Part shown: one piece after another, positions 50,257 to 64,000 of the stretch | How the letters are laid out: each line of letters starts with the position of its first letter | Position numbering within the stretch: the first letter of the stretch is position 1 | Source of the DNA: Prevotella intermedia ATCC 25611 = DSM 20706 | GTDB lineage: Bacteria; Bacteroidota; Bacteroidia; Bacteroidales; Bacteroidaceae | Reading direction: 5' to 3' | DNA length: 64,000 nt | Assembly (NCBI RefSeq): GCF_001953955.1 | Contig: NZ_CP019301.1 | Location: forward strand, 264,501-328,500 | Position numbers and translations under genes: made by a program | Notes under the pieces: generated by a model | What the model was told of the DNA's origin: nothing | What the model saw: only the letters and a program-made list of their open reading frames with translations | The model's database searches: none

Positions 50257-50901
50257 ATGGTACAAGTAAAGCGGTTTGTGTTCAATATGATAGAAGAAAA
50301 CACCTACATTCTATGGGACGACAGCTTGGAATGCGTCATCATTGACTGCGGTGCTTTCTATGAAGAGGAACGCCAAACAATTGTAAACTTCATCAAGGAG
50401 AATAATCTGAAGCCTGTGCATTTGTTGGCAACACACGCTCATCTCGACCACAACTTCGGCATAAACACCATAAACGATGCTTTCGGTTTGCTGCCCGAAG
50501 TGTCTGAAAAAGACGCTCCAGCATTGCGTTCGCTCAAAGAACAGGCGCAAAATATGTTCGGAATGCAGCTAAACTACGACTTTCCACCTGTTGGAAACAC
50601 TTTCAAGGCAGGCGAAACGATAAAGTTCGGGCAACACGAACTTGCGATTATCAATACCCCCGGACACACTCCTGGTGGTGTAACGTTCTACTGTAAAGAA
50701 GAGAACATAGCCTTTACGGGCGACACACTCTTCCGTGGCAGCGTGGGAAGAACCGACTTTGAAGGTGGCAGTATGTTTCAATTAATCAGCAGCTTGAGAG
50801 AATTATCGCAACTTCCTGATAATACAGTTGTTTATTCGGGGCACGGAGAGCAGACAACAATAGGCTACGAGTTGGCACACAACCCCTATATGGACCGATA
50901 A
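50257..50901 (+). CDS. MBL-fold metallohydrolase (glyoxalase II-like)
   Basis: A 214-residue binuclear-metal hydrolase. The metal motif is THAHLDHNFG near residue 54; further ligands are in TPGHTPGG near 136 and FTGDTLFRGSVGRTD near 153, with a final His in YSGHGEQT. This is the GloB-like YcbL/RbfX type common next to housekeeping genes; substrate probably a thioester, unproven. ruvC starts 4 bases later. Confidence 0.9.
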   Translation: MVQVKRFVFNMIEENTYILWDDSLECVIIDCGAFYEEERQTIVNFIKENNLKPVHLLATHAHLDHNFGINTINDAFGLLPEVSEKDAPALRSLKEQAQNMFGMQLNYDFPPVGNTFKAGETIKFGQHELAIINTPGHTPGGVTFYCKEENIAFTGDTLFRGSVGRTDFEGGSMFQLISSLRELSQLPDNTVVYSGHGEQTTIGYELAHNPYMDR

Positions 50902-50905
50902 AAGT

Positions 50906-51487
50906 ATGGCAACGGTGCAGCAACGACCCTCGAAAATAATCCTTGGCATCGACCCTGGAACCAACGTTATGGGCTATGGCGTTATCCGAACGCAAGGAAA
51001 CAAAGCCGAAATGGTGGTGATGGGCGTTATTGATATGCGCAAAGAGAAAGACGTATATTTGCGATTGGGCAAGATTTTCGAGCGTGTTACGGGCATCATC
51101 GAAGAGTATTTGCCCGATGAAATGGCGATAGAAGCCCCCTTCTTTGGCAAGAATATCCAGTCGATGTTGAAGTTAGGGCGTGCTCAAGGGGTAGCCATTG
51201 CAGCTGCCATACAGCGCGATATTCCCATTCACGAGTATGCACCGCTGAAGATAAAGATGGCTATAACGGGCAACGGTGCAGCGTCGAAAGACCAAGTTGC
51301 AGGAATGCTTCAGCGTTTGTTGCACCTGCAAGACAACGAAATGCCGCAGTTTATGGACGCAACCGACGCTCTTGGAGCCGCCTATTGCCATTTCCTGCAA
51401 TCGAACCGCCCCGAAACCGATGCCAAACATTATGGGTCGTGGAAAGATTTCGCAGTAAAAAACAAGTCAAGAATTAGCAACAAGTAA
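50906..51487 (+). CDS. ruvC: Holliday-junction endonuclease RuvC
   Basis: Resolves Holliday junctions with RuvAB. It has 193 residues. The first catalytic Asp is in LGIDPGTNVMGYG near residue 14. The second acidic is in MAIEAPFFGKNIQS near 74, and the C-terminal acidic pair in DATDALGAAYCH near 153. The start is 4 bases after the MBL gene. It is the last gene of the operon. Confidence 0.95.
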   Translation: MATVQQRPSKIILGIDPGTNVMGYGVIRTQGNKAEMVVMGVIDMRKEKDVYLRLGKIFERVTGIIEEYLPDEMAIEAPFFGKNIQSMLKLGRAQGVAIAAAIQRDIPIHEYAPLKIKMAITGNGAASKDQVAGMLQRLLHLQDNEMPQFMDATDALGAAYCHFLQSNRPETDAKHYGSWKDFAVKNKSRISNK

Positions 51488-51564
51488 GTACGTAATTAGT
51501 AATAAATAACATACAACATTTTCAAGAATTAAACGTTTCGTTCGTTTTTACGTAAAAAGATATG

Positions 51565-51572
51565 TATTTTTG
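51565..51572 (+). promoter_or_regulatory. candidate -7 box of the 51611 gene
   Basis: TATTTTTG on the plus strand, 38 bases before the ATG. Confidence 0.5.
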
Positions 51573-51610
51573 CATTTAAAGAAATAAGATAATAATAAAA
51601 TTCAAGTATA

Positions 51611-52132
51611 ATGATTAGATTTAAGAAAACAGCTTTGGCACTCGCTGCCTTGGCATTCACAGCCACAACTTATGCACAAAAGCCACAGCGTGTGTACGAA
51701 CAGATTTACAGAAGCTCATATAAAGTAGCTTCCGACAAGAAAGAAGACACCGAAGTACGTAAGATTGCATCGTTCAAGGTAGACGCTATCGGCTATCTGA
51801 AAACAAAGACTTTGGAAGCACTTTCTGCTCCCCAAACAAAACTAACAGCTAAAGAAATCGCACGTTTGAACAGTCGGTTGGACTCAATGGCTTACTATAT
51901 GTACGACTATGTGAACCTTTATTTGAAGAGTTACGCAAAGGCGACAACAGAAAGAGAGCGGAACCGCATAAAGAAGATATTTCGTGAAGCCAGCATAAAC
52001 AACCCATTGTATGGCGACGAGAACGACGATATTATCTTGGCATACTACAATCGCGAGGACTACCCTACTCAATTCTCGCTCGACACCAATTGGATTGCTG
52101 CGCTTGTAGAAGTGAAAAAGCTGCTGAAATAA
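51611..52132 (+). CDS. exported protein of unknown function
   Basis: A 173-residue protein with signal peptide MIRFKKTALALAALAFTATTYAQ. The mature part is helical and basic, with SSYKVASDKKEDTEVRKIASFKVDAIGYL-type segments and several tyrosines (MAYYMYDYVNLYLKSY). It contains no cysteine. I do not recognise the family. It has its own promoter and stands alone, so regulation gives no hint of function. Confidence 0.75.
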   Translation: MIRFKKTALALAALAFTATTYAQKPQRVYEQIYRSSYKVASDKKEDTEVRKIASFKVDAIGYLKTKTLEALSAPQTKLTAKEIARLNSRLDSMAYYMYDYVNLYLKSYAKATTERERNRIKKIFREASINNPLYGDENDDIILAYYNREDYPTQFSLDTNWIAALVEVKKLLK

Positions 52133-52269
52133 ATATTCAACGGCAACCGATTCTTAAAGTTGATTCCTCCCTGTTGCTGAATATAGGCTGAGAAAACTTG
52201 CTTGGAATGGTTGCTGAAAGTTGCTTTAGTATTGCAGATACATAGATTTTATGCTGCGTAGTGGCAGGT

Positions 52270-52293
52270 AGGGGTGCGATAAACCGCACCCCT
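52270..52293. terminator. GC-rich hairpin in a convergent gap
   Basis: AGGGGTGCG (52270-52278) pairs perfectly with CGCACCCCT (52285-52293). No T run follows on either strand, so function as a terminator is uncertain. Confidence 0.35.
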
Positions 52294-52317
52294 AACACCG
52301 AAGAGACAGCAGTGTTA

Positions 52318-52358
52318 TCTAGAAAATCTAGGAAACTAGAACTTTCTAGAAATTCTAA
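52318..52358. repeat. CTAGAA-type array beside repeat copy 12
   Basis: Units TCTAGAAAA, TCTAGGAAA, CTAGAACTTT, CTAGAAATT at 9-11 base spacing, outside the right end of copy 12. Confidence 0.75.
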
Positions 52359-52385
52359 GACAGAACTTGAAAACAGCTTTAGTTC

Positions 52386-52571
52386 TGTAAAAATAATTCG
52401 TAGGAAAAACCATAATTTCGATTTGGCATTGCGAAAGCGGCTCTTTTGCGATGCAAAACCTACGCTTTTAGCGTGCAAAACAGCCGCTTTTAGAATGCAA
52501 AACAATAGGTTTTGCAAAACGTTGATAGCAAGATAGTTATGCGACAGTTAAACTTGCGAAAAATATTTACA
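52386..52571 (-). repeat. dispersed 186-bp repeat, copy 12
   Basis: Minus-strand order Z-X-Y-X'. It lies in the 902-base convergent gap between the 51611 gene and the HU-anchor gene. Flank beyond its left end (52580-52625, GTAGGTTGTAT-like) matches copy 9. Confidence 0.9.
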
Positions 52572-52670
52572 GCTATATACCCTTCTTTTCATTCGTAAAA
52601 TAGGTTGTATCCATTCATTTTCAATTGTTCCATTGTTGTGCTTATAGGAAGTACTTACGTACCTATAAAA

Positions 52671-52866
52671 TAAAAGCCCCACTTACTTCTATCAGCAAAT
52701 GGGGCCTTACTCTAAACCAATAAAAATGTTTAGCCGTACTAATCAAAAACTAAATACCAAATCTTAATTAAGTATGTTAAGGGGAAAAAGCCTATAACCT
52801 TTATACTAACTAATTGCCTTTGATATTCTCAATCATCAACTTTACTTATCACTACTAATACTATTA
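52671..52866 (-). ncRNA. candidate small RNA with its own promoter and terminator
   Basis: On the minus strand a perfect TATCTTTG box (52879-52872) is followed about 170 bases later by a terminator hairpin: GGCCCCA pairs with TGGGGCT, then TTTATTTTAT (about 52705-52666). There is no convincing ORF between. Pieces such as AGTACGGCTAAAC look conserved in style, but I cannot match an Rfam family. The upstream gene ends 150 bases away on the same strand, so this is either an independent RNA or a long 3' end of that gene. Confidence 0.4.
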
Positions 52867-52871
52867 CATTG

Positions 52872-52879
52872 CAAAGATA
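52872..52879 (-). promoter_or_regulatory. candidate -7 box of the small RNA
   Basis: TATCTTTG on the minus strand, with TTG 14 bases farther upstream, closer than usual for -33. Confidence 0.45.
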
Positions 52880-52938
52880 CTGCTTTCAGACAATATTAGT
52901 AGAAAGAAAGTGGAATAAATACAGCTTATATGAAGTCA

Positions 52939-53017
52939 AACGATTGCACTATGAACGGCGGTCGGCTATTCTTTCATAACCTCCTGACGAACCGTTCATA
53001 GCCTTTAACGAATCGTT
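52939..53017. repeat. nested inverted repeat after the HU-anchor gene
   Basis: Outer arms AACGATT (52939-52945) and AATCGTT (53011-53017) enclose CTATGAACGG (52949-52958) and CCGTTCATAG (52992-53001), all perfect. There is no T run. It stands 18 bases after the stop of the HU-anchor gene and 60-140 bases upstream of the small-RNA promoter. Confidence 0.6.
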
Positions 53018-53034
53018 GCTATGTTCTTGACAAT

Positions 53035-54189
53035 TTATTTTGTGCGGTATTGTGGACGGAGTTCCACTTTGGGAACTTTCATAGTGTCGCCTGCAGACAT
53101 CGTTGTGGCATTGTTCAACACTTGGAAATAGCCCACCATGTCGGGACCAAGTGCCCTACGACTGTACGATTGCATGGTCTGACCTTTCTTTAATACCACC
53201 GTTTTCTCTATGCCGACAATGTCGTAAGCACCGTAACGAATACGCTTGTCGCTGCTCATTTTCTTATACTTCTCGGCTTCGTCAGTCGCTTGCTGTGCAG
53301 CCTTGGCAGTCGTTTTTCCTGTATTGGTTGCTGTTTGCTTGGCTGTTGTCTTCGTCTTTTCGGCTAAACTGTCCTCTGCTTGGGTACGGATAGCCATCTT
53401 GTTGTCGCGAAGTGCGGCATCTTTTCCAAACTTATAACCGAAGAAATACATAACTGCTATTACGGCAAAGGCTACAGAAGACCACAGCAACCAATTTATT
53501 TTCTTGGGCTTTTCGATAGGAAAGGCATTTACTTTCGGCACTTCGGCAACTTGCTCTGGCTGTTCTTCAACAGCTTCTGCCTTTACTTCGACTACTGTTT
53601 CCTTTTCTTCAACAGCCGCTTTCTGCTCTTCTTCCCTTTCTTTTGCTATCTCTTCTTTCGCCTCGACAGCTACCATCGGGATTTCAACCGTTGGCTGCGG
53701 CACTTCCTCAGCAGGCTTTTCGTCGATGATTTCGGCGGTTATTTCTTCTTTCGTTTCTGCCTTTTCCTCATCAGAAGCAACAATTTCTTCAGCAGAAACT
53801 ACAATTTCATCGGTATTTTCAGCCTTTTCTTCATCGTCCGACTTGCTTTCTATGTCGGCAAAATCCACACCATCGTTCAATACAACCGTTTCAAACTGTG
53901 CGAAAGGCTTGTTTACAAGCTCTTTCATCGTAGCATCTGGGGTGAACGAAACCTTTTCGTGCCCCTCTATCAGCACACGTTCGCCCGTGTTTACATTCAC
54001 ACTTTCGCGTGGCTTCACGGCTTGTACCTTAAACGTGCCAAGCCCTTTTACCTTTACAAGTTTATCGGTTTTCAACCCTTCGTTCACCACATCGAAGATG
54101 GCAGAAACGAACTTTTCCGCCTCCTTCACGGTTATTTTATGCTTCTTTGCCACTGCATCGGCAATAAGCTGTAACGCTGTTTTAGCCAT
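53035..54189 (-). CDS. HU-family DNA-binding domain fused to a membrane anchor and C-terminal domain
   Basis: A 384-residue protein. Residues 1-92 are an HU/IHF fold (VVNEGLKTDKLVKVKGLGTFKV; PRESVNVNTGERVLI; HEKVSFTPDA). Residues about 105-225 are an acidic Glu/Lys/Val linker. A single hydrophobic helix INWLLWSSVAFAVIAVMYFF follows near 230-250. The remainder has an Ala/Thr/Lys-rich stretch and a C-terminal region that looks LysM/SPOR-like (VVLKKGQTMQSYSRRALG, then GYFQVLNN). DNA would be held at the inner membrane with the tail in the periplasm. Its ATG overlaps the upstream HU gene's stop by one base (TAATG). Confidence 0.85.
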   Translation of the reverse strand: MAKTALQLIADAVAKKHKITVKEAEKFVSAIFDVVNEGLKTDKLVKVKGLGTFKVQAVKPRESVNVNTGERVLIEGHEKVSFTPDATMKELVNKPFAQFETVVLNDGVDFADIESKSDDEEKAENTDEIVVSAEEIVASDEEKAETKEEITAEIIDEKPAEEVPQPTVEIPMVAVEAKEEIAKEREEEQKAAVEEKETVVEVKAEAVEEQPEQVAEVPKVNAFPIEKPKKINWLLWSSVAFAVIAVMYFFGYKFGKDAALRDNKMAIRTQAEDSLAEKTKTTAKQTATNTGKTTAKAAQQATDEAEKYKKMSSDKRIRYGAYDIVGIEKTVVLKKGQTMQSYSRRALGPDMVGYFQVLNNATTMSAGDTMKVPKVELRPQYRTK

Positions 54190-54476
54190 TATTCAGCCCC
54201 TCCTTTCTTCAGTTTCTCCTTTACCGATGCCGTTGCACGGAAGTTTAACACCAACTTTGGTGGCACAAGCATTCGCAATCCCGTAGCGGGGTTGGTCATA
54301 ATGCGTTCGAGTCGCTTCTTCACTTCAAACGAACCGAAGCCCGAAACTAATACAGGCTCTCCCGATTCAAAGTTGTCGCCCATAGCTTGCAAAGCCGTTT
54401 TCACAAGTTTTTGTGTCTCGTCTTGCGAACGACCCACCCTGTTTGCCAATGCGGTTATAAATTCCTTGTTGTTCAT
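54189..54476 (-). CDS. HU-family DNA-binding protein
   Basis: A 95-residue nucleoid protein of normal HU length: MNNKEFITALANRVGRSQDETQ, VLVSGFGSFEVKKR near 42 and MTNPATGLRMLVPPKLVLNFRA near 60, though the DNA-arm sequence NPATG is followed by a slightly unusual LRMLVPPK. It starts 58 bases after rimO and is translationally coupled to the HU-anchor gene, so the two proteins are probably made together and could form a heterodimer. Confidence 0.92.
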   Translation of the reverse strand: MNNKEFITALANRVGRSQDETQKLVKTALQAMGDNFESGEPVLVSGFGSFEVKKRLERIMTNPATGLRMLVPPKLVLNFRATASVKEKLKKGGAE

Positions 54477-54534
54477 CTTTGGGTTATTTGCTTTTTAAAA
54501 ACGTAAAGTGTATTGTCTCGACTATGCGATATTT

Positions 54535-55836
54535 CTATCCGTTTACTACATCGCCGTAGAGGTCAAACTCATCGGCAGCGGTTATTTTCACATCATAGAA
54601 GTTGCCAATGGTGAGCGGTGAATCCGCCTTTATCAGCACTTCGGGGTCTACATCAGGCGAACAGAACTCGCTTCTGCCAATGTAATATTCGCCTTCCTTG
54701 CGGTCGATAATCACTTTTAGCGTCTGTCCTATCTTCTCCGCTTCAATTTCTGCGGATATTTCCTGCTGCAATGCCATCAGCTTATCGAGTCTTTGCTGCT
54801 TCACTTCTTGCGGTACATCGTCCTCATAGTGCAGCGCACTGTATGTTCCTTCTTCGTGCGAGTAGGCGAATGCGCCCATACGCTCGAACCGTGCCCACCT
54901 TACAAACTCCATCAACTCGTTGAAATCCTCTTCGGTTTCGCCTGGGAAGCCCACCAAAAGCGTGGTGCGTATGTGCAGTCTTGGCACTTTCTCACGCAAG
55001 GTGCGAATGAAATCCATTGTTTCCTGCTTCGTTACGTGGCGGTGCATACGCAATAACATATTGTCGGAAATGTGCTGAAGGGCTACGTCAAGATACTTGC
55101 AAACCTGCGGTTTCTCTCGTATCACGTCAAGCAAGTCCCACGGAAACTGGTTAGGATAGGCGTAATGCAACCTTATCCACTCCACTCCGGGTATGTCAGC
55201 CATACGCGAAATGAGTTCGGTAATGTGGTGCTTGCCGTCTAAATCCACACCGTAGTAGGTCAGTTCCTGCTCGATAACCTGAAATTCCTTCACGCCTTCG
55301 GCTGCCAATTCGGCTACTTCCTGCAAGATGTCGTCCATCTTTCGCGAGCGATGCTTGCCCGTAATCAGCGGAATGGCGCAGTAAGCGCAATGGCGGTCGC
55401 ACCCTTCGGCTATCTTGATGTAGGCATAATGCGGTGGCGTGGTAAGGTGGCGGCGTCCGTCGCACGACGGTATTTCAGCCTTTCCGAGGTCGGTAATGAG
55501 TTGCTTGAAGTTGAATTTGCCGTAGAACTTGTCTACTTCTGGAATTTCTTTCTCCAACTCTTCCTTGTATCTTTGCGACAGACAGCCCATTACGTAAAGT
55601 TGTCTGAGCTGCCCATTCTCCTTTCTGTTCACGAATTCGAGTATCGTATTGATGCTCTCTTCCTTTGCCGTTTCAATGAAACCGCATGTATTTATAACGG
55701 CGATTTCGCCTTCTGGGGTTTCCGAATCGTGCACACAATCGTAGCCATTGGCTTCAAACTGTTTCATCAGTAGCTCGGAATCGACAAGATTTTTCGAGCA
55801 CCCCATCGTTATAATATCTATCTGATTCTTCTTCAT
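54535..55836 (-). CDS. rimO: ribosomal protein S12 methylthiotransferase RimO
   Basis: Radical SAM enzyme that adds a methylthio group to an Asp of ribosomal protein S12. It has 433 residues. The N-terminal UPF0004 domain begins ITMGCSKNLVDSE and has two more cysteines (NTCGF, GCLSQRY) for the second cluster. The radical SAM motif is CDRHCAYC near 146, and the C-terminal TRAM domain ends in FDLYGDVVNG. It lies between ftsY and HU in one operon. Confidence 0.95.
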   Translation of the reverse strand: MKKNQIDIITMGCSKNLVDSELLMKQFEANGYDCVHDSETPEGEIAVINTCGFIETAKEESINTILEFVNRKENGQLRQLYVMGCLSQRYKEELEKEIPEVDKFYGKFNFKQLITDLGKAEIPSCDGRRHLTTPPHYAYIKIAEGCDRHCAYCAIPLITGKHRSRKMDDILQEVAELAAEGVKEFQVIEQELTYYGVDLDGKHHITELISRMADIPGVEWIRLHYAYPNQFPWDLLDVIREKPQVCKYLDVALQHISDNMLLRMHRHVTKQETMDFIRTLREKVPRLHIRTTLLVGFPGETEEDFNELMEFVRWARFERMGAFAYSHEEGTYSALHYEDDVPQEVKQQRLDKLMALQQEISAEIEAEKIGQTLKVIIDRKEGEYYIGRSEFCSPDVDPEVLIKADSPLTIGNFYDVKITAADEFDLYGDVVNG

Positions 55837-55899
55837 TCAATTGTATCCCCACGCTTAGGGTTCTTGTTTCTTCTGCCTGAATACGTTGCGAAATGAGGT

Positions 55900-56856
55900 T
55901 TAGTCTTGCTTGAACAAGCTATCTACAAACTGTTCTTTATTAAATAGTTGCAAGTCTTCCATTCCCTCGCCTAAGCCAATGTATCGCACAGGCACTTTCA
56001 GCTGGTCGCTAATACCGATAACTACGCCGCCTTTAGCGGTTCCGTCGAGTTTGGTAATGGCGAGCGAGGTGATTTGTGTAACCGATGCAAACTGCTTAGC
56101 CTGCTCGAAAGCGTTCTGCCCCGTGCTGCCGTCGAGCACCAACATAACATCGTCGGGAGCTTCGGGCAGTATCTTTTTCATTACGTCCTTAATCTTTTTC
56201 AACTCGTTCATCAGTCCTACCTTGTTGTGCAAGCGGCCTGCCGTGTCGATGATAACAACGTCGGCACCGTTCGCTTTCGCACTCTGAAGGGTGTCGAAAG
56301 CCACACTGGCAGGGTCGGAACCCATCTGTTGCTTAATGACAGGCACACCTACGCGGTCGCCCCAAATCTGAATTTGTTCTACGGCAGCTGCACGGAAGGT
56401 GTCGGCAGCACCAAGGTAGACCTTCTTTCCTGCGTTCTTGAACTGGTATGCCAATTTGCCGATGGTGGTGGTTTTGCCCACTCCGTTCACGCCAACCACG
56501 AGTATAACGTATGGTTTATGGTCGGTTGGCAAGTCCCAATCCTCTGCATTCTCGGTATTATTCTCGGTTAAGAGTGTGGCAATTTCTGCCCTCAGAACGG
56601 TGTTTAATTCCGATGTTGAAACGTATTTGTCGCGTGCAATACGTTCCTCTATGCGCTGAATGATTTTCACGGTGGTATCTACACCAACGTCTGACGTTAT
56701 AAGGATTTCTTCCAAATTGTCCAAAACCTCATCGTCTACTTTCGACTTGCCTGCTACGGCACGTGTTATCTTTGAGAATACGCTTTGCTTCGTAGTCTCA
56801 AGACCTTTGTCGAGTACTTCTTTTTTCTTCTTATTGAAAAGTCCGAAAAATCCCAT
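55900..56856 (-). CDS. ftsY: signal recognition particle receptor FtsY
   Basis: SRP receptor GTPase that docks ribosomes at the membrane. It has 318 residues: short N-terminal region with MGFFGLFNKKKKE and no acidic A-domain. The GTPase has G1 VVGVNGVGKTTTIGKLA near 122, DTFRAAAVEQ near 154, DTAGR near 205 and TKLDGTAKGG near 265. It is first in the ftsY-rimO-HU operon, with a -7 box 18 bases upstream. Confidence 0.96.
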   Translation of the reverse strand: MGFFGLFNKKKKEVLDKGLETTKQSVFSKITRAVAGKSKVDDEVLDNLEEILITSDVGVDTTVKIIQRIEERIARDKYVSTSELNTVLRAEIATLLTENNTENAEDWDLPTDHKPYVILVVGVNGVGKTTTIGKLAYQFKNAGKKVYLGAADTFRAAAVEQIQIWGDRVGVPVIKQQMGSDPASVAFDTLQSAKANGADVVIIDTAGRLHNKVGLMNELKKIKDVMKKILPEAPDDVMLVLDGSTGQNAFEQAKQFASVTQITSLAITKLDGTAKGGVVIGISDQLKVPVRYIGLGEGMEDLQLFNKEQFVDSLFKQD

Positions 56857-56873
56857 AATAAGCTAATTTGGGG

Positions 56874-56881
56874 CAAAAGTA
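56874..56881 (-). promoter_or_regulatory. candidate -7 box of the ftsY operon
   Basis: TACTTTTG on the minus strand, 18 bases before the ftsY ATG. Confidence 0.5.
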
Positions 56882-57016
56882 CGAAAAAACGGCTAAAGTA
56901 GCAAATAATAAGCAGGCTAATAACGGCTTTATGGAAAAACGTGTGAAAAAGCTTAAATTATGCCCGCAATTTTGCCATAAATCCACCACGCTGATGACAG
57001 GTTTTCGATACGATTT

Positions 57017-57109
57017 TGTAAAGATAATTCTGATAGAAAACGATAATTTCGATTTGACGTTGCGAAAGCGTAGGTTTTGCGATGCAAAAGAGCCGCTTTT
57101 ACAGCGCAA
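57017..57109 (-). repeat. truncated dispersed repeat, copy 13 (half)
   Basis: Matches copies 4 and 6 from the right end TGTAAAGATAATTC through modules Y' and X, then stops at about 57109, exactly 93 of 186 bases. Module Z and the left end are missing. The break coincides with the presumed left edge of the integrated element. Confidence 0.85.
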
Positions 57110-57190
57110 CTAATCCTTGAAAATGAAGAAAAATCGAAGCTGGTGTAAACTGACTGATAATGAGCATGAAACGGAACGGTTTGCATAAAA

Positions 57191-57214
57191 CTGCCTCTTT
57201 CACAAAGAGCAGCA
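57191..57214. repeat. short hairpin near the element edge
   Basis: CTGCCTCTTT and AAAGAGCAGC arms enclose a short loop. It may be part of the recombinase binding region or a leftover terminator. Confidence 0.4.
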
Positions 57215-57216
57215 AT

Positions 57217-57347
57217 ATGCAGATTTAGGCAGAAGTTCAGTTACCAAAGCATTACCCGATTTTGCCACAGGTAACGATGAAGCAATATTCGGTAACTGAA
57301 TTATTTTCGCTCGTGTGGCTGTTGCTTCTGTCGGCAGTTTTCTGCAT
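57217..57347. repeat. nested inverted repeats upstream of the recombinase genes
   Basis: ATGCAGA (57217-57223), CAGAAG plus TTCAGTTACC (57230-57245) on the left mirror GGTAACTGAA (57291-57300), CTTCTG (57325-57330) and TCTGCAT (57341-57347) on the right. The 10-mer TTTTGCCACA occurs at about 57260 and 57375. This could be the recombinase's attachment or binding region. Confidence 0.5.
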
Positions 57348-57371
57348 AAGTGAGGAACGCTTTGATTTTGG

Positions 57372-57379
57372 TAATTTTG
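57372..57379 (+). promoter_or_regulatory. candidate -7 box of the recombinase operon
   Basis: TAATTTTG on the plus strand, 19 bases before the ATG at 57399. Confidence 0.5.
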
Positions 57380-57398
57380 CCACAAAACATCAAAGTGT

Positions 57399-58628
57399 AT
57401 GAAACACGAAAAAATGAAGGTGTTGCTCTACCTCAAAAAGAGCGGTCTTGACAAGTCTGGGAAAGCTCCGGTTATGGGGCGGATAACCATTGGGTGTTCC
57501 ATTGCCCAGTTCAGTTGCAAGTTATCCTGCAATCCCGATTTGTGGAATCCGCGTGAGAGCCGTATGGACGGCAAGAGCCGTGAGGCGGTGGAAGTGAACG
57601 GCAGGTTGGAAAACCTGTTGCTGTCCGTTCAGTCGGCTTATCAGTCCTTGCTATCCAAAGGTTGCTCATTTGACGCAACCGATATAAAGGAGCAGTTTCA
57701 GGGCAGCGTGCAGACACGGTGCATGCTCATCGAAAGACTGGACATGCTCATCAAGGAAAAAGAGAACCATATAGGTATAGACATCAAGGAAGGAGCCATA
57801 TACGGCTACCACTCCACCCGCATACACTTACAGAAGTTTATCCAACAGAAGTACAAGGTTTCGGACTTGGCATTCTCGCAACTTACAGAGGCTTTTATCC
57901 ATGAGTTCCGGCACTATTTCTTAGGTGAGTGTGGTTTTCAGGAAAGCACGTTCTATAATGTAGCCACGCATTTGAAGACGGTGTGCAGACAGGCATACCG
58001 TGAGGGATTGGCAGACACACTACTGTTTGACAAAGCCAAAATCAGCAAGGGCGACAAGAAATAGCCCAAGGCACTTGACAGGGAAGCATTGGACAAGTTA
58101 AAGGCTATCCGATTTGATGATTTGGAGGAGGAAATGGAAACGGCAAGGGACATTTTTCTCTTTGCCTGTTATACAGGTGCATCCTATTGCGACTTGATGG
58201 AACTGAACAAATCCCATCTTGTCCGTGATGACGAGGGCAGTCTGTGGCTGAAGTTCAACCGCCAGAAGACAGGTGTGCTATGCCGTATCAAGCTGCTGCC
58301 CGAAGCCGTTAGGCTAATAGCGAAGTACCGTAGCGATGAAAGGGAAACGCTGCTTCCCTATATCAAGTATAAGAACTATCAGACCTGTTTGAAAGCCCTG
58401 CGGCTTCGTGCAGGCATATCGTTTCCATTTACCACGCATACCGCAAGGCACACCTTTGCAACGCTCATCACACTTGAACAGGGCGTGCCCATCGAGACGG
58501 TGAGCAAGATGCTGGGACATTCCAACATAAGCATGACCGAACGCTATGCAAAGGTAACACCACAGAAACTTTTTGAGGAGTTCGACCGTTTCCTCTCTTT
58601 CACCGAAGATTTACGTTTAACCATATAA
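57399..58628 (+). pseudogene. tyrosine recombinase interrupted by an in-frame TAG
   Basis: One frame of 409 codons reads through as a Bacteroidota tyrosine recombinase but contains TAG at 58062-58064, between the core-binding domain (residues 1-221) and the catalytic domain. Downstream catalytic parts are intact: HTARHTFATL, LGHSNISMTERYAKV with the tyrosine. The first catalytic Arg position reads ACYTGASYCDLMEL; lack of that Arg is known for related Bacteroides integrases. Only one base change would restore the frame. Either the gene is dead, it is a sequencing error, or the two pieces (second start at 58089 possible) still act. Promoter at 57372. Confidence 0.8.
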
Positions 58629-58640
58629 AAGACAACCATT

Positions 58641-59960
58641 ATGAGAAGTACATTCAAGATACTGTTCTATATCAACAGACAGAAGACAAAGGCAGACGGA
58701 AAGACAGTCATTCTCTGCCGTATCACCATAGACGGGAAAAACTCAGCTATTACTACAGGCGAAGAGTGTAAGCCCTCCGAGTGGAATACGAAGCAGAGCT
58801 TGACAACTGACAGAAAGACCAATCAAAGACTCCATGAGTTCAGGGAACTTGTGGAAAAGACCTATCAGGATATACTGACAAGGGACGGGGTGGTAAGCGT
58901 GGAACTCATCAAATACCACCTGCAAGGCATAACAGAGAATCCGACCACGCTCCTTGCCATGAGCGGGGCGGAGCTGCAAGCCGTCAAGGAGAGTGTGGGC
59001 AGGTCAAGAGCGGAGGGAACTTATCTAAACCTATTCCATTCTGACAGAATTCTCCGTGAGTTTGTGAAAGATAAAGGGGTGCAGGACATACCCATTTCCA
59101 CCATTACGGAGGACTTGTTTGAGGAATACCGTTTCTTTCTCAAAAAGCGTGGATTGAAAGGAACGACTATCAACAACTATCTCTGCTGGCTGAGCAGGCT
59201 GATGTTCCGTGCAGTCAGTCAAAGGATTATCCGCTGCAACCCATTTGAGAATGCCAAGTATGAGAAGGAGGAAAAGAAGATACGCTTCCTGCAGAAGAGC
59301 GACGTCGCCAAGCTCATGGTAATGACAATGAATGACAGGGAAGCGGAACAGGCAAGGCTGATGTTCGTCTTTTCCTGTTTTACAGGACTGGCAATCGCCG
59401 ATATGGAGTACTTGCTATATAAGCATATTCAAACGGCAGCAGACGGGAGGAAGTATATCCGCAAGGAACGCCAAAAGACAAAGGTCGAGTTCATCGTACC
59501 ACTGCATCCCGTAGCTGAAGCCATCATCAGCCATTGCTGGAACGAGCAGGAAAGAAACGAAGAACTGCAGACGGTGAAAGAAAAAGGCAATAGCCTTATC
59601 TTCCAACCTCATTGCAGCCGTAGCGTGATAGATGTCAAATTGAGTATCGTGGGCAAGGCTTGTGGCATTAGGGAGAGATTGTCGTTCCACATGGCTCGCC
59701 ACACTTTCGGCACGATGACTCTTAGCGCAGGTATTCCCAGTGAGAGCATTGCCAAGATGATGGGACATGCCTCCATATCAAGTACTCAAGTATATGCGCA
59801 GGTGACAGACAGCAAGATTTCTGAAGATATGGACAGGCTCATAGACAAGTACAAAGCAAAGGACAAAAATACCACAAATGTAAATATGGAAGCAGCAACA
59901 GACACAAAGACAATTCCGCTTGTTGTCAAATCAAATGGTAGAAAGGAGGAAACAGTATGA
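58641..59960 (+). CDS. tyrosine recombinase/integrase
   Basis: An intact 439-residue site-specific recombinase. The N-terminal arm-binding-like part is MRSTFKILFYINRQKTK; a SAM-like core-binding domain spans about 125-215. The catalytic domain has CFTGLAIADMEYL (no Arg at the first catalytic site, as in relatives), HMARHTFGTM and MGHASISSTQVYAQV with the nucleophile Tyr. It follows the first recombinase by 12 bases and overlaps the next ORF by 4 bases (ATGA). Such tandem pairs occur on Bacteroidota elements and may act together in integration or DNA inversion. Confidence 0.92.
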   Translation: MRSTFKILFYINRQKTKADGKTVILCRITIDGKNSAITTGEECKPSEWNTKQSLTTDRKTNQRLHEFRELVEKTYQDILTRDGVVSVELIKYHLQGITENPTTLLAMSGAELQAVKESVGRSRAEGTYLNLFHSDRILREFVKDKGVQDIPISTITEDLFEEYRFFLKKRGLKGTTINNYLCWLSRLMFRAVSQRIIRCNPFENAKYEKEEKKIRFLQKSDVAKLMVMTMNDREAEQARLMFVFSCFTGLAIADMEYLLYKHIQTAADGRKYIRKERQKTKVEFIVPLHPVAEAIISHCWNEQERNEELQTVKEKGNSLIFQPHCSRSVIDVKLSIVGKACGIRERLSFHMARHTFGTMTLSAGIPSESIAKMMGHASISSTQVYAQVTDSKISEDMDRLIDKYKAKDKNTTNVNMEAATDTKTIPLVVKSNGRKEETV

Positions 59961-60373
59961 ATGCGAACAATAACTGCCAAGGAAAGACAGGCCCAAATAG
60001 TCTGCGTAGTTATTTTGATTGGGACTGCAATATGCAGGTTATCCGCAAGGGAAACGGGAAGATTGCCATGACAGAGAGTGAACTCGTGAAATTCTTCAGT
60101 GTAACGTGGAGAAAACTCAACTATAGGTTGCAAACAATAATAAAATCCTCAAACCTGCATCCCGGTGAAAGGAGTGCAGGAGAGGAGAAAATCGTTATCA
60201 ATGGACAGTTCAAAGGCTATGCACCGCTATATCCACTTCCTATCATCATCGTTCTGTCCTTTATGTTAGACAGCACGGAAGCTCATTTGTTCAGAAAGCA
60301 TATCTGTCAGGAATTGCAGAATACTGCATTCGTAATAATACCGATATTTTTGTTTGGCAATACAGATAACTGA
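59957..60373 (+). CDS. small protein coupled to the recombinases, function unknown
   Basis: A 138-residue protein overlapping the recombinase stop by 4 bases. The N-terminal half looks like a small helical DNA-associated module (MTESELVKFFSVTWRKLNYR near residue 37); a hydrophobic stretch (YPLPIIIVLSFML near 96) follows. I do not know the family. Its position suggests an accessory or directionality role, which is inference. Confidence 0.65.
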   Translation: MNANNNCQGKTGPNSLRSYFDWDCNMQVIRKGNGKIAMTESELVKFFSVTWRKLNYRLQTIIKSSNLHPGERSAGEEKIVINGQFKGYAPLYPLPIIIVLSFMLDSTEAHLFRKHICQELQNTAFVIIPIFLFGNTDN

Positions 60374-60377
60374 TTAC

Positions 60378-60454
60378 TATTTCTTTTTTCTTTCACTGAT
60401 TACATCTTACTACATAACTACACTAAGGAGTAAAATAGTGAAAGAAAAGAAATA
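60378..60454. repeat. long inverted repeat after the recombinase operon
   Basis: TATTTCTTTTTTCTTTCACT (60378-60397) pairs with AGTGAAAGAAAAGAAATA (60437-60454) with a 2-base offset, enclosing 39 bases that hold ACTAC repeats. It could be a terminator or a recombination site. The rest of the 342-base gap contains a promoter box (60555) and the leader of the sigma/barrel gene. Confidence 0.6.
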
Positions 60455-60554
60455 CTGTAGTATGTAAGAGGATTTTCTTTCTACTACTTAAAAACTACAT
60501 ATTACTTCTTTTTATAATCTTTCAATAAAAGCATACTATTTGTTATTATATTCG

Positions 60555-60562
60555 TATCTTTG
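60555..60562 (+). promoter_or_regulatory. candidate -7 box of the sigma/barrel gene
   Basis: TATCTTTG on the plus strand, giving a leader of about 150 bases before the ATG. Confidence 0.5.
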
Positions 60563-60648
60563 TAAGGTGATTTTCGAAGTAGCATAATATGTCTGCATAT
60601 TCCTTTTAAAGTTATTAAAGGTTAAAATAAAGAAGACCAATAAAAATA

Positions 60649-60663
60649 AGTGCAGTCTTTTAG
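60649..60663 (+). promoter_or_regulatory. 15-bp leader motif, first copy
   Basis: AGTGCAGTCTTTTAG, 52 bases before the sigma/barrel ATG. It is followed by a perfect hairpin CTCCTTTT-AATA-AAAAGGAG. The same 15-mer recurs at 62446. Confidence 0.55.
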
Positions 60664-60715
60664 AGCAAACAGACTCCTTTTAATAAAAAGGAGATGTTCC
60701 TTTGCTTAAAATAAT

Positions 60716-62410
60716 ATGATACAGATTGACGCTTGTAAAAATGGGGATAAGGAAGCCCTGGGAGAACTCTATACGACATACGCTAATAGACTTTTAGGCG
60801 TATGTCGGCATTATGTAAAAGATGATAATTCGGCTCACGATATTTTGCATGATGCATTTATTATAATCTTCATGTCTATCCAAGATTTGAAAGATGAATC
60901 AAAATTGGAAGGTTGGATGATAACAATCGTAAGAAATCTATCCTTAAAATATCTCCAAAACACAGAAAAAGAAGCCATACCATTATCTTGCTTGAATATA
61001 GAAATTCAGGAAGCAGCATGTGAGGAACAGAAAAAGATAGAGTTCGGACTATTGTTGTCAGCGATAGAGTCCTTACCAGAAGGGAATCGTGAAGTTTTCA
61101 AGCTCTCAGTCTTAGAAGGTCTTTCCCACAAGGAGATAGGAAAACAGCTCGGCATCAATCCGCACAGTTCTTCTTCCCAGTTGTTCAGGGCAAAGAAAAC
61201 ATTGCGTGCAATGTTGATTAACTATTGGATGCTCTTCTTGCTTCCAATTCTTATACCAGTTTATATATATATTGCTACGAGAGATAAAACTGTTGAGATT
61301 TCCGATAACGGATCTACTGCTACAAACACTCATAAGAGTCAATCAAAATATGTTCAAAAAGGATTAGGAACTCTGAAGAAAGAAGAGTCAAGATATTCTA
61401 CCTCGCCAAGTACCGCCAGTAATGCAGGAAGAGGTTCTGCCAGTGAGATTGTCCCTGAAGGAAATATTGCTTTGCAAGTATCAACAGACAGTGCTATAAC
61501 GGAACAACGAGCATTACCCTTTAATGTGGATTCCCTGCAAAAACATTTGGCTATAGGTATCGGAACTAACGATTCTTTATACTGCATTCCACAGACACCA
61601 CAAGATAAGATGATAGCATTGAATGAAAGAATGAACTTCAACGCCTGCAATAAGAAGAAATATCCGTGGACATTCAATTTTGGTTATTCATCCAATGCCG
61701 GTGCAAATGGAGCCGTGTCGAATTTGGATTATCTGTCACTTGTAGATTACGCCAACGGTGGTGCGACAGCCAAACTTTACACTTGGGCTGATTTAGAGGA
61801 TTATTATGCCCGGAATAATGCTTTGATGGATTCTGTCGAGAGAGCGAGAATGTCCTTGATACTGCGTGAACATCCAACAGATGACAACGGTTCATTGGGG
61901 GAGATCGCACATCATTGTCGCCCTAGGACCTTTGGTCTTTCCATTAATAAGCAATTAAGTCCAAAATGGACTTTCGGTACAGGTATAACTTACACCAGAC
62001 TAAAATCTGAATTTGAAAGCGAGTATAACAAGGCAAGACTGGTGAAAACCCAGAAAATAGATTATGTTGGCATACCATTGAGACTGACCTATCAAGTATG
62101 GTCAAAAGGACGGCTCAATGCATATATGACAGGTGGTATGGCATTTGAAATGCCTGTCCACAGTTCGCTTGAAAAGAAGTACATCATAACAGCCGACTCG
62201 TCGTACACGTTGAAGAGGGACATCAAGCCACGTTATCAGTGGTCTGTAAACTTAGGTGTCGGTGTGCAGTACAAGCTATTCAAGCCTTTCAGTCTGTATC
62301 TGGAACCAAACATGTTCTACTACTTCAGAAATAGCAGTAACCTTGAGACTTACCGCACAGAGCATCCGTTCATCATAACGGTACCATTCGGATTGCGGCT
62401 TACTTGGTAA
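60716..62410 (+). CDS. ECF sigma factor fused to an inner-membrane helix and an outer-membrane beta-barrel
   Basis: A 564-residue single chain. Residues 6-80 are sigma region 2 (LGELYTTYANRLLGVCRHYV; AHDILHDAFIIIF; EGWMITIVRNLSLKYLQ). Residues about 118-165 are region 4 with the helix-turn-helix (LPEGNREVFKLSVLEGLSHK; IGKQLGINPHSSSSQLFRAK). A membrane helix YWMLFLLPILIPVYIYI spans about 170-188. Residues 190-310 are a Ser/Thr/Gln-rich, probably unstructured linker. From about 312 (YPWTFNFGYSSNAG) to the end is a PorT-like outer-membrane barrel finishing in VPFGLRLTW. The chain could span both membranes. No anti-sigma domain is seen. The start is the first ATG after the leader motif. Confidence 0.8.
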   Translation: MIQIDACKNGDKEALGELYTTYANRLLGVCRHYVKDDNSAHDILHDAFIIIFMSIQDLKDESKLEGWMITIVRNLSLKYLQNTEKEAIPLSCLNIEIQEAACEEQKKIEFGLLLSAIESLPEGNREVFKLSVLEGLSHKEIGKQLGINPHSSSSQLFRAKKTLRAMLINYWMLFLLPILIPVYIYIATRDKTVEISDNGSTATNTHKSQSKYVQKGLGTLKKEESRYSTSPSTASNAGRGSASEIVPEGNIALQVSTDSAITEQRALPFNVDSLQKHLAIGIGTNDSLYCIPQTPQDKMIALNERMNFNACNKKKYPWTFNFGYSSNAGANGAVSNLDYLSLVDYANGGATAKLYTWADLEDYYARNNALMDSVERARMSLILREHPTDDNGSLGEIAHHCRPRTFGLSINKQLSPKWTFGTGITYTRLKSEFESEYNKARLVKTQKIDYVGIPLRLTYQVWSKGRLNAYMTGGMAFEMPVHSSLEKKYIITADSSYTLKRDIKPRYQWSVNLGVGVQYKLFKPFSLYLEPNMFYYFRNSSNLETYRTEHPFIITVPFGLRLTW

Positions 62411-62445
62411 ATGGAGATAATGAGTAAATAAAAAGTCATGAATAC

Positions 62446-62460
62446 AGTGCAGTCTTTTAG
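62446..62460 (+). promoter_or_regulatory. 15-bp leader motif, second copy
   Basis: AGTGCAGTCTTTTAG, 45 bases before the radical SAM ATG, followed at once by a small AGTAG-TTTT-CTACT hairpin. Identical to 60649-60663. Confidence 0.55.
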
Positions 62461-62505
62461 TAGTTTTCTACTCTTAACAATAAAAGACAAAACTCAAAAG
62501 AAAGA

Positions 62506-63573
62506 ATGTACAGTATTTATGACTACATCCACAATGGAATTGTATTTGTCAATAATGTAGTACGCAGACAGCACAAGGAACTCACATCCTTGATGATATA
62601 TTCCACAACAAGCTGTCAGTCTCGTTGCAAGCACTGTTCCATTTGGAAGAAACCTATAGAAAATCTCAGCTTAGATGACATCATCAAAATAATGGACAGC
62701 AAATGTGTAACTAAACGCACGATGGTCGGTTTGGAAGGAGGTGAGTTTATCCTCCATCCCGAAGCAGACAAGATATTAGGATGGTTTGATACTAACCACC
62801 CAAACTATACATTGCTGTCCAACTGCCTTGCTGCAAACAAGGTAATATCTGCCGTAAAAAATCATCATCCCAAGCATCTATACATATCACTTGACGGCGA
62901 TAGAGAAACCTATCGCTATATGCGTGGGAGAGATGGGTATGACAAGGTGATTAAGGTTATAGAAACATGTAAAGACATCGTGCCTGTCTCCCTGATGTTC
63001 TGTCTTTCTCCATGGAACTCGTTTGAGGATATGGGGCATGTCATAGATTGTGCCAAACAATATAACATTGATGTACGTATTGGCATTTACAGCACAATGT
63101 CATTCTTTGACACAACCAAAGATTTAATGGAATCCAATGATGCTGATTTCATCAGCCAGATACCCTCTTCCATACATCAAACATATGAGAACTTTGACTT
63201 TGTAGCTTTGTATGACGAGTGGAAGAATAATAGACTGAGACTGCGGTGTCATAGTATTTTCAGTGAATTGGTCATCCATTCTAATGGAGACGTTCCCTTG
63301 TGCCAAAACCTGGATGTGATATTAGGCAATATCCATGAGAACACACTTGACGAGATATTCAACTCAAAGGAGAGCTGCGAAGTCCAGTGTCAATACTCTA
63401 AAGCGTGTAATCAATGCTGGATTAACTATCATCGTAAATACGATATTATCCTGTTGAGAAATTTAGAAAGAATAATCCCCAAACGGCTGATAGAGTTGTT
63501 TTATGGGAAGTATCAATGGACCAGCAACAGGCAAACCACCTATAAGAAACATTTCAAGCAAATAAAAGCATAG
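62506..63573 (+). CDS. radical SAM/SPASM-like protein
   Basis: A 355-residue radical SAM enzyme. The cluster motif CQSRCKHC is at residues 37-44. A GGEF-type second motif (LEGGEF near 74) follows, and the C-terminal half carries further cysteines (RLRCHSIF; VPLCQNLD; CEVQCQYSKACNQCW) in a SPASM/twitch-like pattern that would hold an auxiliary cluster. Such enzymes modify peptides, sugars or lipids. The substrate is unknown; the next gene is a sugar-type oxidoreductase, so a carbohydrate or glycan precursor is a fair guess. It shares a leader motif with the sigma/barrel gene. Confidence 0.85.
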   Translation: MYSIYDYIHNGIVFVNNVVRRQHKELTSLMIYSTTSCQSRCKHCSIWKKPIENLSLDDIIKIMDSKCVTKRTMVGLEGGEFILHPEADKILGWFDTNHPNYTLLSNCLAANKVISAVKNHHPKHLYISLDGDRETYRYMRGRDGYDKVIKVIETCKDIVPVSLMFCLSPWNSFEDMGHVIDCAKQYNIDVRIGIYSTMSFFDTTKDLMESNDADFISQIPSSIHQTYENFDFVALYDEWKNNRLRLRCHSIFSELVIHSNGDVPLCQNLDVILGNIHENTLDEIFNSKESCEVQCQYSKACNQCWINYHRKYDIILLRNLERIIPKRLIELFYGKYQWTSNRQTTYKKHFKQIKA

Positions 63574-63578
63574 CTAAA

Positions 63579-64000
63579 ATGGGATATTTAGATAACATTA
63601 TAGACAGATATAGGCGCATACGCAGCATAAAAGAACTGCAATATACCTACACACAGCAGTATGCTCTTGTGGGGTTTGGCAATCATTGTGCAAACAACCT
63701 GCTACCCGTTATACAGTATCTTCAGCTGCCACTGAAATATATCTGCTGTACCTCTGAAAAGAAAGCTGAACTGATTTCTCAAAAGTACAAAGGAGTCAAA
63801 GGTACAACTTCTTTACAGGACATCCTGCTTGATGATACTATTTCGGGAGTCTTCGTGGCAGCTAATCCACATTCACATTTCCAGATTGCAACCGAAGTTA
63901 TAAAAGCAGGTAAATCCTTATTTATAGAGAAACCACCCTGTGAGGATAAAAGAGAACTAAAGGCTTTGACCGATACAGTCAAACTATATGGCTCACAACA
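63579..64000 (+). CDS. Gfo/Idh/MocA-family oxidoreductase (N-terminal part)
   Basis: Starts 5 bases after the radical SAM stop and runs open to the window edge (140 codons). The N-terminal Rossmann domain shows YALVGFGNHCANNLLPVI near residue 28, SLQDILLDDTISGVFVAANPHSHF near 80, and the NAD-site motif FIEKPPC near 118. The usual GxGxxG is loose (GFGNHC). Likely an NAD-dependent sugar dehydrogenase/epimerase; the C-terminal domain is outside the window. Confidence 0.85.
   Translation, partial: MGYLDNIIDRYRRIRSIKELQYTYTQQYALVGFGNHCANNLLPVIQYLQLPLKYICCTSEKKAELISQKYKGVKGTTSLQDILLDDTISGVFVAANPHSHFQIATEVIKAGKSLFIEKPPCEDKRELKALTDTVKLYGSQ

What the first reader, a model, noticed from the sequence alone, without database searches (positions are those of the whole stretch)
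60716..62410. Sigma factor, inner-membrane helix and outer-membrane barrel in one polypeptide
Sigma regions 2 and 4 are directly followed by a membrane helix, a 120-residue disordered linker and a PorT-like barrel, with no stop or anti-sigma domain between. Dual-membrane-spanning anti-sigma factors with an outer-membrane barrel have been reported in Bacteroides thetaiotaomicron (from memory, Dma proteins linked to vesicle formation). Here the sigma factor itself seems to be tied to the barrel. An outer-membrane event could release or free the sigma domain by proteolysis, a direct surface-to-promoter route. It lies on a mobile element beside a radical SAM gene.
Basis: partly seen in the sequence, partly recalled or inferred. 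Interest (0 to 1): 0.9.

Follow-up and report, generated by a model that had tools for sequence, protein, structure and literature searches.

The report
One-piece sigma factor spanning both membranes
A gene-switching protein (a sigma factor) is built into one chain with an inner-membrane helix and an outer-membrane barrel, so that one molecule could carry a signal from the bacterial surface to DNA; the same layout was recently reported in a gut Bacteroides as Dma3, and here it comes with a likely on-switch sequence that makes the idea testable.

Summary
ORF 60716-62410 (564 aa) is one intact chain: ECF sigma regions 2 and 4, a membrane helix 3-11 residues on, a disordered tether and an OmpA-like barrel. 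It is no frameshift artefact: 23 of 26 named loci carry the same single ORF, and fused sigma domains form one clade (100/100) beside two-gene sigma/Dma pairs.

The layout is already in print: Dma3 of Bacteroides thetaiotaomicron (bt_2778-2779), function unknown. I could not obtain its sequence, so orthology is untested.

Added here: (1) the 50-64-residue cytosolic segment of split Dma proteins is absent; region 4's last helix is modelled running into the membrane (moderate confidence); (2) a promoter-like core, TGCAGTC, lies upstream of 62 of 68 fused genes and of 36 of 40 following radical SAM genes, but of 0 of 35 operon-internal Gfo/Idh genes; two-gene pairs in Bacteroides carry TGCAGTATTT (19 of 24 loci); (3) partners are radical SAM/SPASM + Gfo/Idh + lipoprotein, or a methyltransferase; (4) here the operon rides a probable mobilizable element. 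Best mechanism, inferred only: sigma held silent at the membrane and released by intramembrane proteolysis.

The parts
60649..60678 (+). promoter-like element before the fused gene: AGTGCAGTCTTTTAG (-35-like TGCAGTC at 60651-60657) and TCCT at 60675-60678 (-10-like)
   Evidence: the 14-mer GTGCAGTCTTTTAG occurs exactly only twice in the 2.67 Mb genome; TGCAGTC in the 150 bp upstream of 62 of 68 fused genes, 0 on the opposite strand, background 0.010 per 150 bp
60716..62410 (+). fused sigma / membrane helix / tether / outer-membrane barrel protein, 564 aa (P0001)
   Evidence: alignment A1 of 75 sequences, the window's own included
60767..60961 (+). sigma-70 region 2 (residues 18-82)
   Evidence: PF04542, 40.4 bits
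61049..61204 (+). sigma-70 region 4 (residues 112-163)
   Evidence: PF08281, 54.5 bits; best conserved part of the family, mean majority fraction 0.75
61217..61279 (+). membrane helix (residues about 168-188), modelled as one helix with the end of region 4 (149-192, pLDDT 58-67)
   Evidence: best hydrophobic window starts 3-11 residues after L163 in 75 of 75 aligned sequences (mean hydropathy median 2.1, lowest 1.25); model
61286..61654 (+). disordered periplasmic tether (residues about 191-313)
   Evidence: pLDDT under 50 over 191-313; 91-143 residues, median 114, from helix end to column W318 in 75 sequences, mean majority fraction 0.21
61661..62407 (+). outer-membrane barrel of OmpA-like fold (residues 316-564), ends in W
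   Evidence: PF13568, model and VIA-align matches; last residue W in 68, Y in 6, K in 1 of 75
62446..62475 (+). second promoter-like element, before the radical SAM gene: AGTGCAGTCTTTTAG (TGCAGTC 62448-62454) and TCTT at 62472-62475
   Evidence: TGCAGTC within 150 bp upstream of 36 of 40 radical SAM genes in this position, of 0 of 35 Gfo/Idh genes
62506..63573 (+). radical SAM/SPASM protein, 355 aa, first gene of the associated operon
   Evidence: PF04055, PF13186; conserved neighbour
63579..64000 (+). Gfo/Idh/MocA oxidoreductase, runs past the window end (complete in L065: 9579-10643); followed outside the window by a 176-aa lipoprotein (L065: 10692-11222)
   Evidence: PF01408
57399..60373 (+). 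mobile-element module upstream: two tyrosine recombinase genes (the first in two pieces, 57399-58064 and 58089-58628; the second 58641-59960) and a 138-aa ORF (59957-60373)
   Evidence: PF00589/PF13102/PF17293; VapE-like, toprim primase, NikA-like and relaxase genes downstream outside the window

Best explanation
It is a one-piece transmembrane ECF sigma factor of the Dma3 type. SHOWN by sequence: sigma domain, membrane helix, tether and barrel in one conserved chain, no cytosolic anti-sigma segment of the split-Dma kind, one clade next to two-gene sigma/Dma pairs, and a conserved promoter-like element before its own gene and before a following operon. INFERRED: the barrel sits in the outer membrane, the tether spans the periplasm and the helix fixes sigma region 4 at the inner membrane, which keeps the sigma inactive; an outer-membrane event (ligand, damage, or failed barrel assembly) leads to cleavage in or next to the membrane helix; the freed sigma then transcribes its own gene and the radical SAM-Gfo/Idh-lipoprotein (or methyltransferase) operon from TGCAGTC-type promoters.
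For: Domain calls and model. Conservation highest in sigma r4 (0.75) and r2 (0.64), above the barrel (0.49) and tether (0.21): the sigma part is under selection. In 75 of 75 aligned sequences the hydrophobic helix begins 3-11 residues after r4; split Dma-like proteins have 50-64 residues before theirs (20 proteins). Fused sigma domains on one side of a branch with 100/100 support, in 100% of 200 bootstrap trees. Promoter-like core: 62 of 68 upstream, 25 of 30 representatives under 60% identity; before operon-leading genes (radical SAM 36 of 40, methyltransferase 12 of 18, lipoprotein 3b 6 of 18) and not before internal ones (Gfo/Idh 0 of 35, lipoprotein 3a 0 of 20); split sigma genes of Bacteroides carry TGCAGTATTT at the same place, 19 of 24 loci. 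Pro in the helix core in 46 of 75 fused against 1 of 20 split. Precedent for release by proteolysis: IutY of P. putida, Prc and RseP (PMC8999054 passages).
Against: Nothing here shows proteolysis, outer-membrane location, a signal, or transcription from the element. The helix 149-192 is modelled at moderate confidence (block pLDDT 58-67). The Pro contrast depends on the window: with a wider 22-residue window it is 62 of 75 against 13 of 20, and the sequences are related. Six of 68 loci lack the exact upstream core (five of these have a one-base variant by eye; L082 has none) and L082 and L076 lack it downstream too; 18 of 68 lack it in the 200 bp downstream. The fused gene's own element in this genome has no A-tract in register. 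This genome's own two-gene pair does not carry TGCAGT[AC]TTT. Nine of 65 loci had neither radical SAM nor methyltransferase by the rule. In B. thetaiotaomicron, deleting dma3 did not revert the vesicle phenotype of dma1 and dma2 mutants (PMC13088901), so no phenotype supports a function.
Confidence: 0.6

Rival explanations
1. The sigma domain works while still anchored in the inner membrane, as the transcription factors ToxR and CadC do (recalled); a pull or twist through the tether changes its access to RNA polymerase and no cleavage is needed.
For: No cleavage site was identified; the sigma domain has both regions needed for polymerase and promoter.
Against: There are only 3-11 residues between region 4 and the hydrophobic helix in 75 of 75 aligned sequences, and the last helix of region 4 is modelled as continuous with it (moderate confidence), so polymerase and DNA would have to sit against the membrane.
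Confidence: 0.2
2. A separate free sigma is made from the same gene by another route (a translation stop, mRNA processing, or loss of the linkage), and the full-length form is mainly a sink or sensor.
For: One relative (L025/L044, same assembly) has an in-frame stop between sigma and membrane helix; L029, L072 and L094/L133 are also in pieces.
Against: Such breaks are the minority: 23 of 26 named loci are uninterrupted; the broken cases may be sequencing errors or decay.
Confidence: 0.1
3. TGCAGTCTTT is not this sigma's promoter but a site for another regulator or a recombination site of the mobile element.
For: Two exact copies flank the fused gene next to recombinase genes in this genome.
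Against: The element is kept where no such recombinase lies near: a related recombinase was found within 6 kb upstream in 6 loci in all, 4 of the 39 with at least 4.5 kb upstream. It has a second conserved block about 14 bases on, lies before leading but not internal genes, and has a close variant before split sigma genes of Bacteroides.
Confidence: 0.1
4. The fusion is an assembly or frameshift artefact, or a decaying gene.
For: Only the few broken relatives (L025/L044, L029, L072, L094/L133).
Confidence: 0.01

Closest known systems
Dma3 of Bacteroides thetaiotaomicron (locus bt_2778-2779; PMC13088901)
   Same: Described as a Dma-family protein whose N-terminus encodes its own sigma domain instead of sitting next to a sigma gene (Discussion read). 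BT2778 is annotated as a sigma-70 family factor (PMC10434189 passages).
   Different: PMC10434189 lists BT2778 as present only in B. thetaiotaomicron among the three species it compared, P. intermedia included.
Das/Dma pairs (Das1-Dma1, Das2-Dma2; two-gene ECF21 sigma and dual membrane-spanning anti-sigma)
   Same: Membrane helix, long disordered tether and C-terminal barrel (definition: PMC13088901); the pairs that I call split by this layout are the nearest sigma relatives of those sampled, and in Bacteroides 19 of 24 carry TGCAGTATTT. This genome holds one such pair beside a NigD gene.
   Different: In pairs the Dma-like protein begins with a 50-64 residue segment before the helix (20 examined) and the sigma is a separate, dissociable protein.
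IutY of Pseudomonas putida (ECF243)
   Same: Sigma factor joined to a membrane protein in one chain, part of a cell-surface signalling system, activated by regulated proteolysis with Prc and RseP (PMC8999054 passages).
   Different: IutY carries a fused anti-sigma factor; its signal is taken up by a separate outer-membrane receptor (recalled). Here there is no anti-sigma segment and the barrel is part of the same chain.
ECF52 sigma factors (SCO4117, Streptomyces coelicolor)
   Same: Sigma with C-terminal membrane helix and an extracytoplasmic part in one chain (PMC8999054 passages; PMC5826349 seen in a search listing only).
   Different: Has a zinc-finger anti-sigma-like domain and a carbohydrate-binding domain, no barrel.

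Membership tests
ECF sigma factor | sigma-70 regions 2 and 4 with ECF-type relatives | tested here: met
   Pfam r2 and r4_2 above cut-off; TIGR02937 85.1 bits against cut-off 42.9; sequence and structure matches to sigmaE, SigW, AlgU
Dma family (two-gene type, Dma1/Dma2) | N-terminal cytosolic anti-sigma segment before the membrane helix | tested here: not met
   sigma region 4 is followed by the helix within 3-11 residues in 75 of 75; split Dma-like proteins have 50-64 residues there (20 examined)
Dma family (two-gene type, Dma1/Dma2) | membrane helix, long disordered tether, C-terminal beta-barrel | tested here: met
Dma family (two-gene type, Dma1/Dma2) | adjacent separate cognate ECF sigma gene | tested here: not met
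   none among the neighbouring ORFs 57399-63998 scanned with Pfam or in the ORF list
Dma3 | N-terminal sigma domain in the same chain, followed by helix, tether and barrel | tested here: met
   definition from PMC13088901
Dma3 | orthology to BT_2778/BT_2779 | not tested
   no B. thetaiotaomicron sequence could be recognised
ECF21 group | membership by ECF group models | not testable with these tools
   no ECF group library here; nearest sampled relatives in the tree are sigma genes beside Dma-like genes
IutY-type sigma/anti-sigma fusion | fused anti-sigma domain between sigma and periplasmic part | tested here: not met
   3-11 residues between r4 and the helix
OmpA-like outer-membrane barrel | beta-barrel fold like OmpA/OprF/NspA | tested here: met
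OmpA-like outer-membrane barrel | exactly 8 strands, closed | tested here: inconclusive

The most novel reading that the evidence does not exclude
Membrane anchorage itself is the anti-sigma device: the last helix of sigma region 4, the one that reads the -35 element, continues into the inner membrane, so the protein is silent until a signal at its own outer-membrane barrel causes cleavage in that helix. One polypeptide would then be surface sensor, trans-envelope wire and transcription factor, with no anti-sigma protein, receptor or TonB-type partner, and would control a modification operon (radical SAM + Gfo/Idh or methyltransferase, with lipoproteins) from a dedicated promoter class.
Probability: 0.45. 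Interest if true: 0.75.

Novelty: new member of a known kind. Interest (0 to 1): 0.5.

Why it matters
How a signal at the outer membrane reaches DNA is usually explained by chains of several proteins. A sigma factor that spans both membranes would do it alone. The architecture is known from one barely studied gene (Dma3). This work shows a conserved family in Bacteroidales with one clade, no split-type anti-sigma segment, a recurrent set of partner genes and a strong candidate target promoter. That promoter gives a reporter with which the signal, the protease and the regulon can be tested directly. A -35-like core shared with Bacteroides two-gene systems would also offer a reason why the dma3 locus rises in dma1 and dma2 mutants (reported in PMC13088901); that link is my inference.

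Tried and rejected
Artefact or frameshift: rejected. Recombination-site reading of the direct repeat: disfavoured. The tool's 'open_frame_aa' as proof of fusion: rejected, because split sigma and Dma-like genes gave open frames of 592-649; I counted fusions only from ORF lists, and a second fused class in Bacteroides that I first inferred was this artefact. Wider regulon in this genome: a two-part pattern gave only the radical SAM copy, control 0, and matches to the 14-mer with up to 2 mismatches (21) were no more common than the reversed control (22). Attachment repeats of the mobile element: a repeat that looked 88 bp long was put together from separate matches; one search shows a dispersed repeat; no boundary is claimed. 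No tRNA gene at 50000-64000. Fold of the 176-aa lipoprotein: model pLDDT 84.7, no PDB match under E 0.001. Families for the lipoproteins: none above cut-off in Pfam or NCBIfam. Literature: radical SAM + SPASM + lipoprotein + Bacteroidetes + sigma factor, no paper held; outer membrane beta-barrel + fused + ECF sigma + Bacteroidetes, one paper on type IX secretion, not read; 'fused anti-sigma' search none; 'membrane-bound sigma factor' one paper on methanobactins, not read. The 2024 PNAS Dma1 paper is not held, so what it says of Dma3 I know only through PMC13088901.

In one search the position rule missed L077, which carries radical SAM and Gfo/Idh genes by the clustering (its ORF runs back into the fused gene), and L062 has a methyltransferase gene on the other strand; the counts given are those.

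Full report
WHAT IS THERE. The ORF at 60716-62410 is a single 564-residue chain. Pfam finds sigma region 2 (18-82), region 4 (112-163) and an outer-membrane barrel (405-529), each above its curated cut-off. AlphaFold, with an alignment of 75 sequences, gives a sigma fold, one helix from 149 to 192 that joins the end of region 4 to the membrane segment, low confidence from 191 to 313, and a barrel from about 316 to 564 (mean pLDDT 67.8; barrel blocks 71-93 from residue 321; junction 58-67). Structure matches are sigmaE/SigW/AlgU for the first part and OprF/NspA/OmpA, and also larger barrels such as OmpT, for the last; I did not count strands. The close relatives that bear a name in the protein search are labelled Prevotella intermedia (98% and 97%) and Segatella oris (97%), so the genome (2,674,170 bases in two contigs) is probably of the P. 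intermedia group; this is an inference.

IT IS CONSERVED. A genome-contig scan gave 26 loci at 56-91% identity; 23 are uninterrupted single ORFs, one has an in-frame stop, one a frameshift, one is cut by a contig end. In a sample of 399 genomes of the same GTDB family 80 had a match at E 1e-40 or better (fusion was checked only in the loci fetched). Of 158 Bacteroides-type genomes (the genus of G392) 12 matched one of its members at 1e-45. Order and phylum samples gave 10 of 393 and 3 of 395 at 1e-60, the window's own genome counted; the 3 are in the same family, the 10 in the same order. Parabacteroides, Phocaeicola and Muribaculaceae members appear among the named protein hits. In the alignment (75 sequences, the window's own included, chosen by me as full length, some near-copies) the best hydrophobic window starts 3-11 residues after L163, the tether is 91-143 residues, the last residue is W in 68, Y in 6 and K in 1; mean majority fractions are r4 0.75, r2 0.64, barrel 0.49, tether 0.21.

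ORIGIN. This genome also has the two-gene form: a NigD gene, a 187-aa sigma and a 437-aa protein with about 63 residues, a membrane helix and a barrel. A tree of sigma domains (75 fused, 26 split, 4 other ECF) puts the fused ones on one side of one branch with 100/100 support and in 100% of 200 bootstrap trees. The program warns of long branches (this genome's split sigma with the outgroup among them). The split Dma-like proteins have 50-64 residues before their helix (20 examined). So the simplest history is one fusion that lost the anti-sigma segment. A proline inside the 14-residue core of the helix is found in 46 of 75 fused and 1 of 20 split proteins (Fisher p 5e-6; related sequences, so not independent); with a wider window that reaches past the helix the numbers are 62 of 75 and 13 of 20, so this point is weak.

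PARTNERS. I kept 68 fused loci with a single ORF of 450 aa or more, no two alike in their last 300 residues. Of these 65 have at least 1 kb downstream; 56 of the 65 have a co-directional radical SAM/SPASM gene (39) or class I methyltransferase gene (17) within 6 kb, never both by this rule. With 4 kb or more downstream (40 loci), the 22 radical SAM loci all have the Gfo/Idh gene too; 12 have the methyltransferase and 19 a lipoprotein of one of two small families. The nine loci with neither enzyme by this rule are L082, L077, L066, L026, L021, L130, L062, L060, L089, L077 does have radical SAM and Gfo/Idh, and L062 a methyltransferase on the other strand.

PROMOTER-LIKE ELEMENT. AGTGCAGTCTTTTAG occurs before the fused gene and before the radical SAM gene; its TGCAGTC begins 65 and 58 bases before the start codons. 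The 14-mer is found nowhere else in the genome without a mismatch. TGCAGTC occurs in the 150 bases upstream of 62 of 68 fused genes and in the 200 bases downstream of 50 of 68; the same word occurs 45 times in 659,690 bases of the rest of these loci (0.010 per 150 bases), and its reverse complement in none of the upstream stretches. Of the six misses, five (L048, L049, L067, L076, L078) have a one-base variant by eye and L082 has none. With representatives under 60% identity the counts are 25 of 30 and 20 of 30. The extended consensus is an A-tract, about ten bases, [GA]TGCAGTCTTT, about 14 bases, TC[CT]T, the last block being less strict. TGCAGTC precedes radical SAM (36 of 40), methyltransferase (12 of 18) and lipoprotein 3b (6 of 18) but not Gfo/Idh (0 of 35) or lipoprotein 3a (0 of 20), that is, leading and not internal genes. 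Two-gene sigma loci of Bacteroides carry TGCAGTATTT 12-58 bases before the sigma ORF in 19 of 24 loci (looser form TGCA[GA][TC]NTTT searched; background 0.015 per 300 bases; one locus left out for short upstream DNA). This genome's own pair does not carry it. The pattern is what an autoregulated ECF sigma would leave, and the variant in the sister group fits related region 4 specificity. The motif, not transcription, has been shown.

MOBILE ELEMENT. Upstream are two tyrosine recombinase genes, one in two pieces; downstream, outside the window, VapE-like, toprim primase, DUF3408, NikA-like, MobA/VirD2-like relaxase and reverse transcriptase genes. The operon therefore probably rides an integrative mobilizable element here; its ends were not found. 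A related recombinase lies within 6 kb upstream in 6 loci in all, 4 of the 39 with at least 4.5 kb upstream, so the operon is mostly not next to this module.

WHAT IS KNOWN. PMC13088901 (abstract, Introduction, Discussion and passages seen; [quoted passage not shown] PMC10434189 (passages) lists BT2778 as a sigma-70 family factor, 2.3-fold up without iron. PMC8999054 (passages) names IutY as the only ECF sigma for which activation by proteolysis of its own membrane extension had been characterised. So the architecture is known; I file this as a new member of the Dma3 kind by layout, with orthology untested.

MECHANISM. Shown: layout, conservation, one clade, missing split-type anti-sigma segment, partner genes, promoter-like element. 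Inferred: outer-membrane location of the barrel, silence by anchorage, cleavage in the membrane helix, autoregulation and control of the operon. The signal and the product of the operon are unknown; the pairing of radical SAM with Gfo/Idh, and its replacement by a methyltransferase, points to chemical modification of an envelope molecule or of the lipoprotein, but this is a guess.

Noticed in passing
57399-58064 and 58089-58628: The first of the two recombinase genes of the mobile element is in two pieces here; the related locus L012 has a single 409-aa ORF in that place.
   Followed up: no
L065: 17581-18771 (outside the window): A 396-aa reverse transcriptase (PF00078, 64 bits) near the relaxase gene, role unknown.
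   Followed up: no
L025/L044, L029, L072, L094/L133: Relatives in which the fused gene is in pieces; in L025 the break falls exactly between sigma and membrane helix. Sequencing error, decay or a natural free-sigma variant cannot be told apart.
   Followed up: partly
L029: 6001-7696: The Hallella multisaccharivorax copy is 98% identical to the window protein over residues 1-182 and 81% over 257-564, which suggests recombination between copies.
   Followed up: no
fused loci: Radical SAM + Gfo/Idh and class I methyltransferase replace each other downstream of the fused gene (39 and 17 of 65 loci, none with both by the rule used).
   Followed up: partly
L065: 10692-11222 (lipoprotein 3a): Lipoprotein family with invariant cysteines and a DCxCxxDVxFK motif, no Pfam or NCBIfam family above cut-off; a possible substrate of the radical SAM enzyme.
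   Followed up: partly
L016, L020, L022, L023, L030 upstream of the fused gene: Two extra genes (about 213 and 345 aa) directly before the fused gene look like an AbiEi/AbiEii-type pair by eye (recalled, not tested); in L020, L022, L023 and L030 they lie between recombinase-type ORFs and the fused gene.
   Followed up: no
L035: 2768-5493: The genome's two-gene NigD-sigma-Dma operon; upstream of NigD there is CGCAACCTTT, which only loosely resembles the TGCAGTNTTT core.
   Followed up: partly
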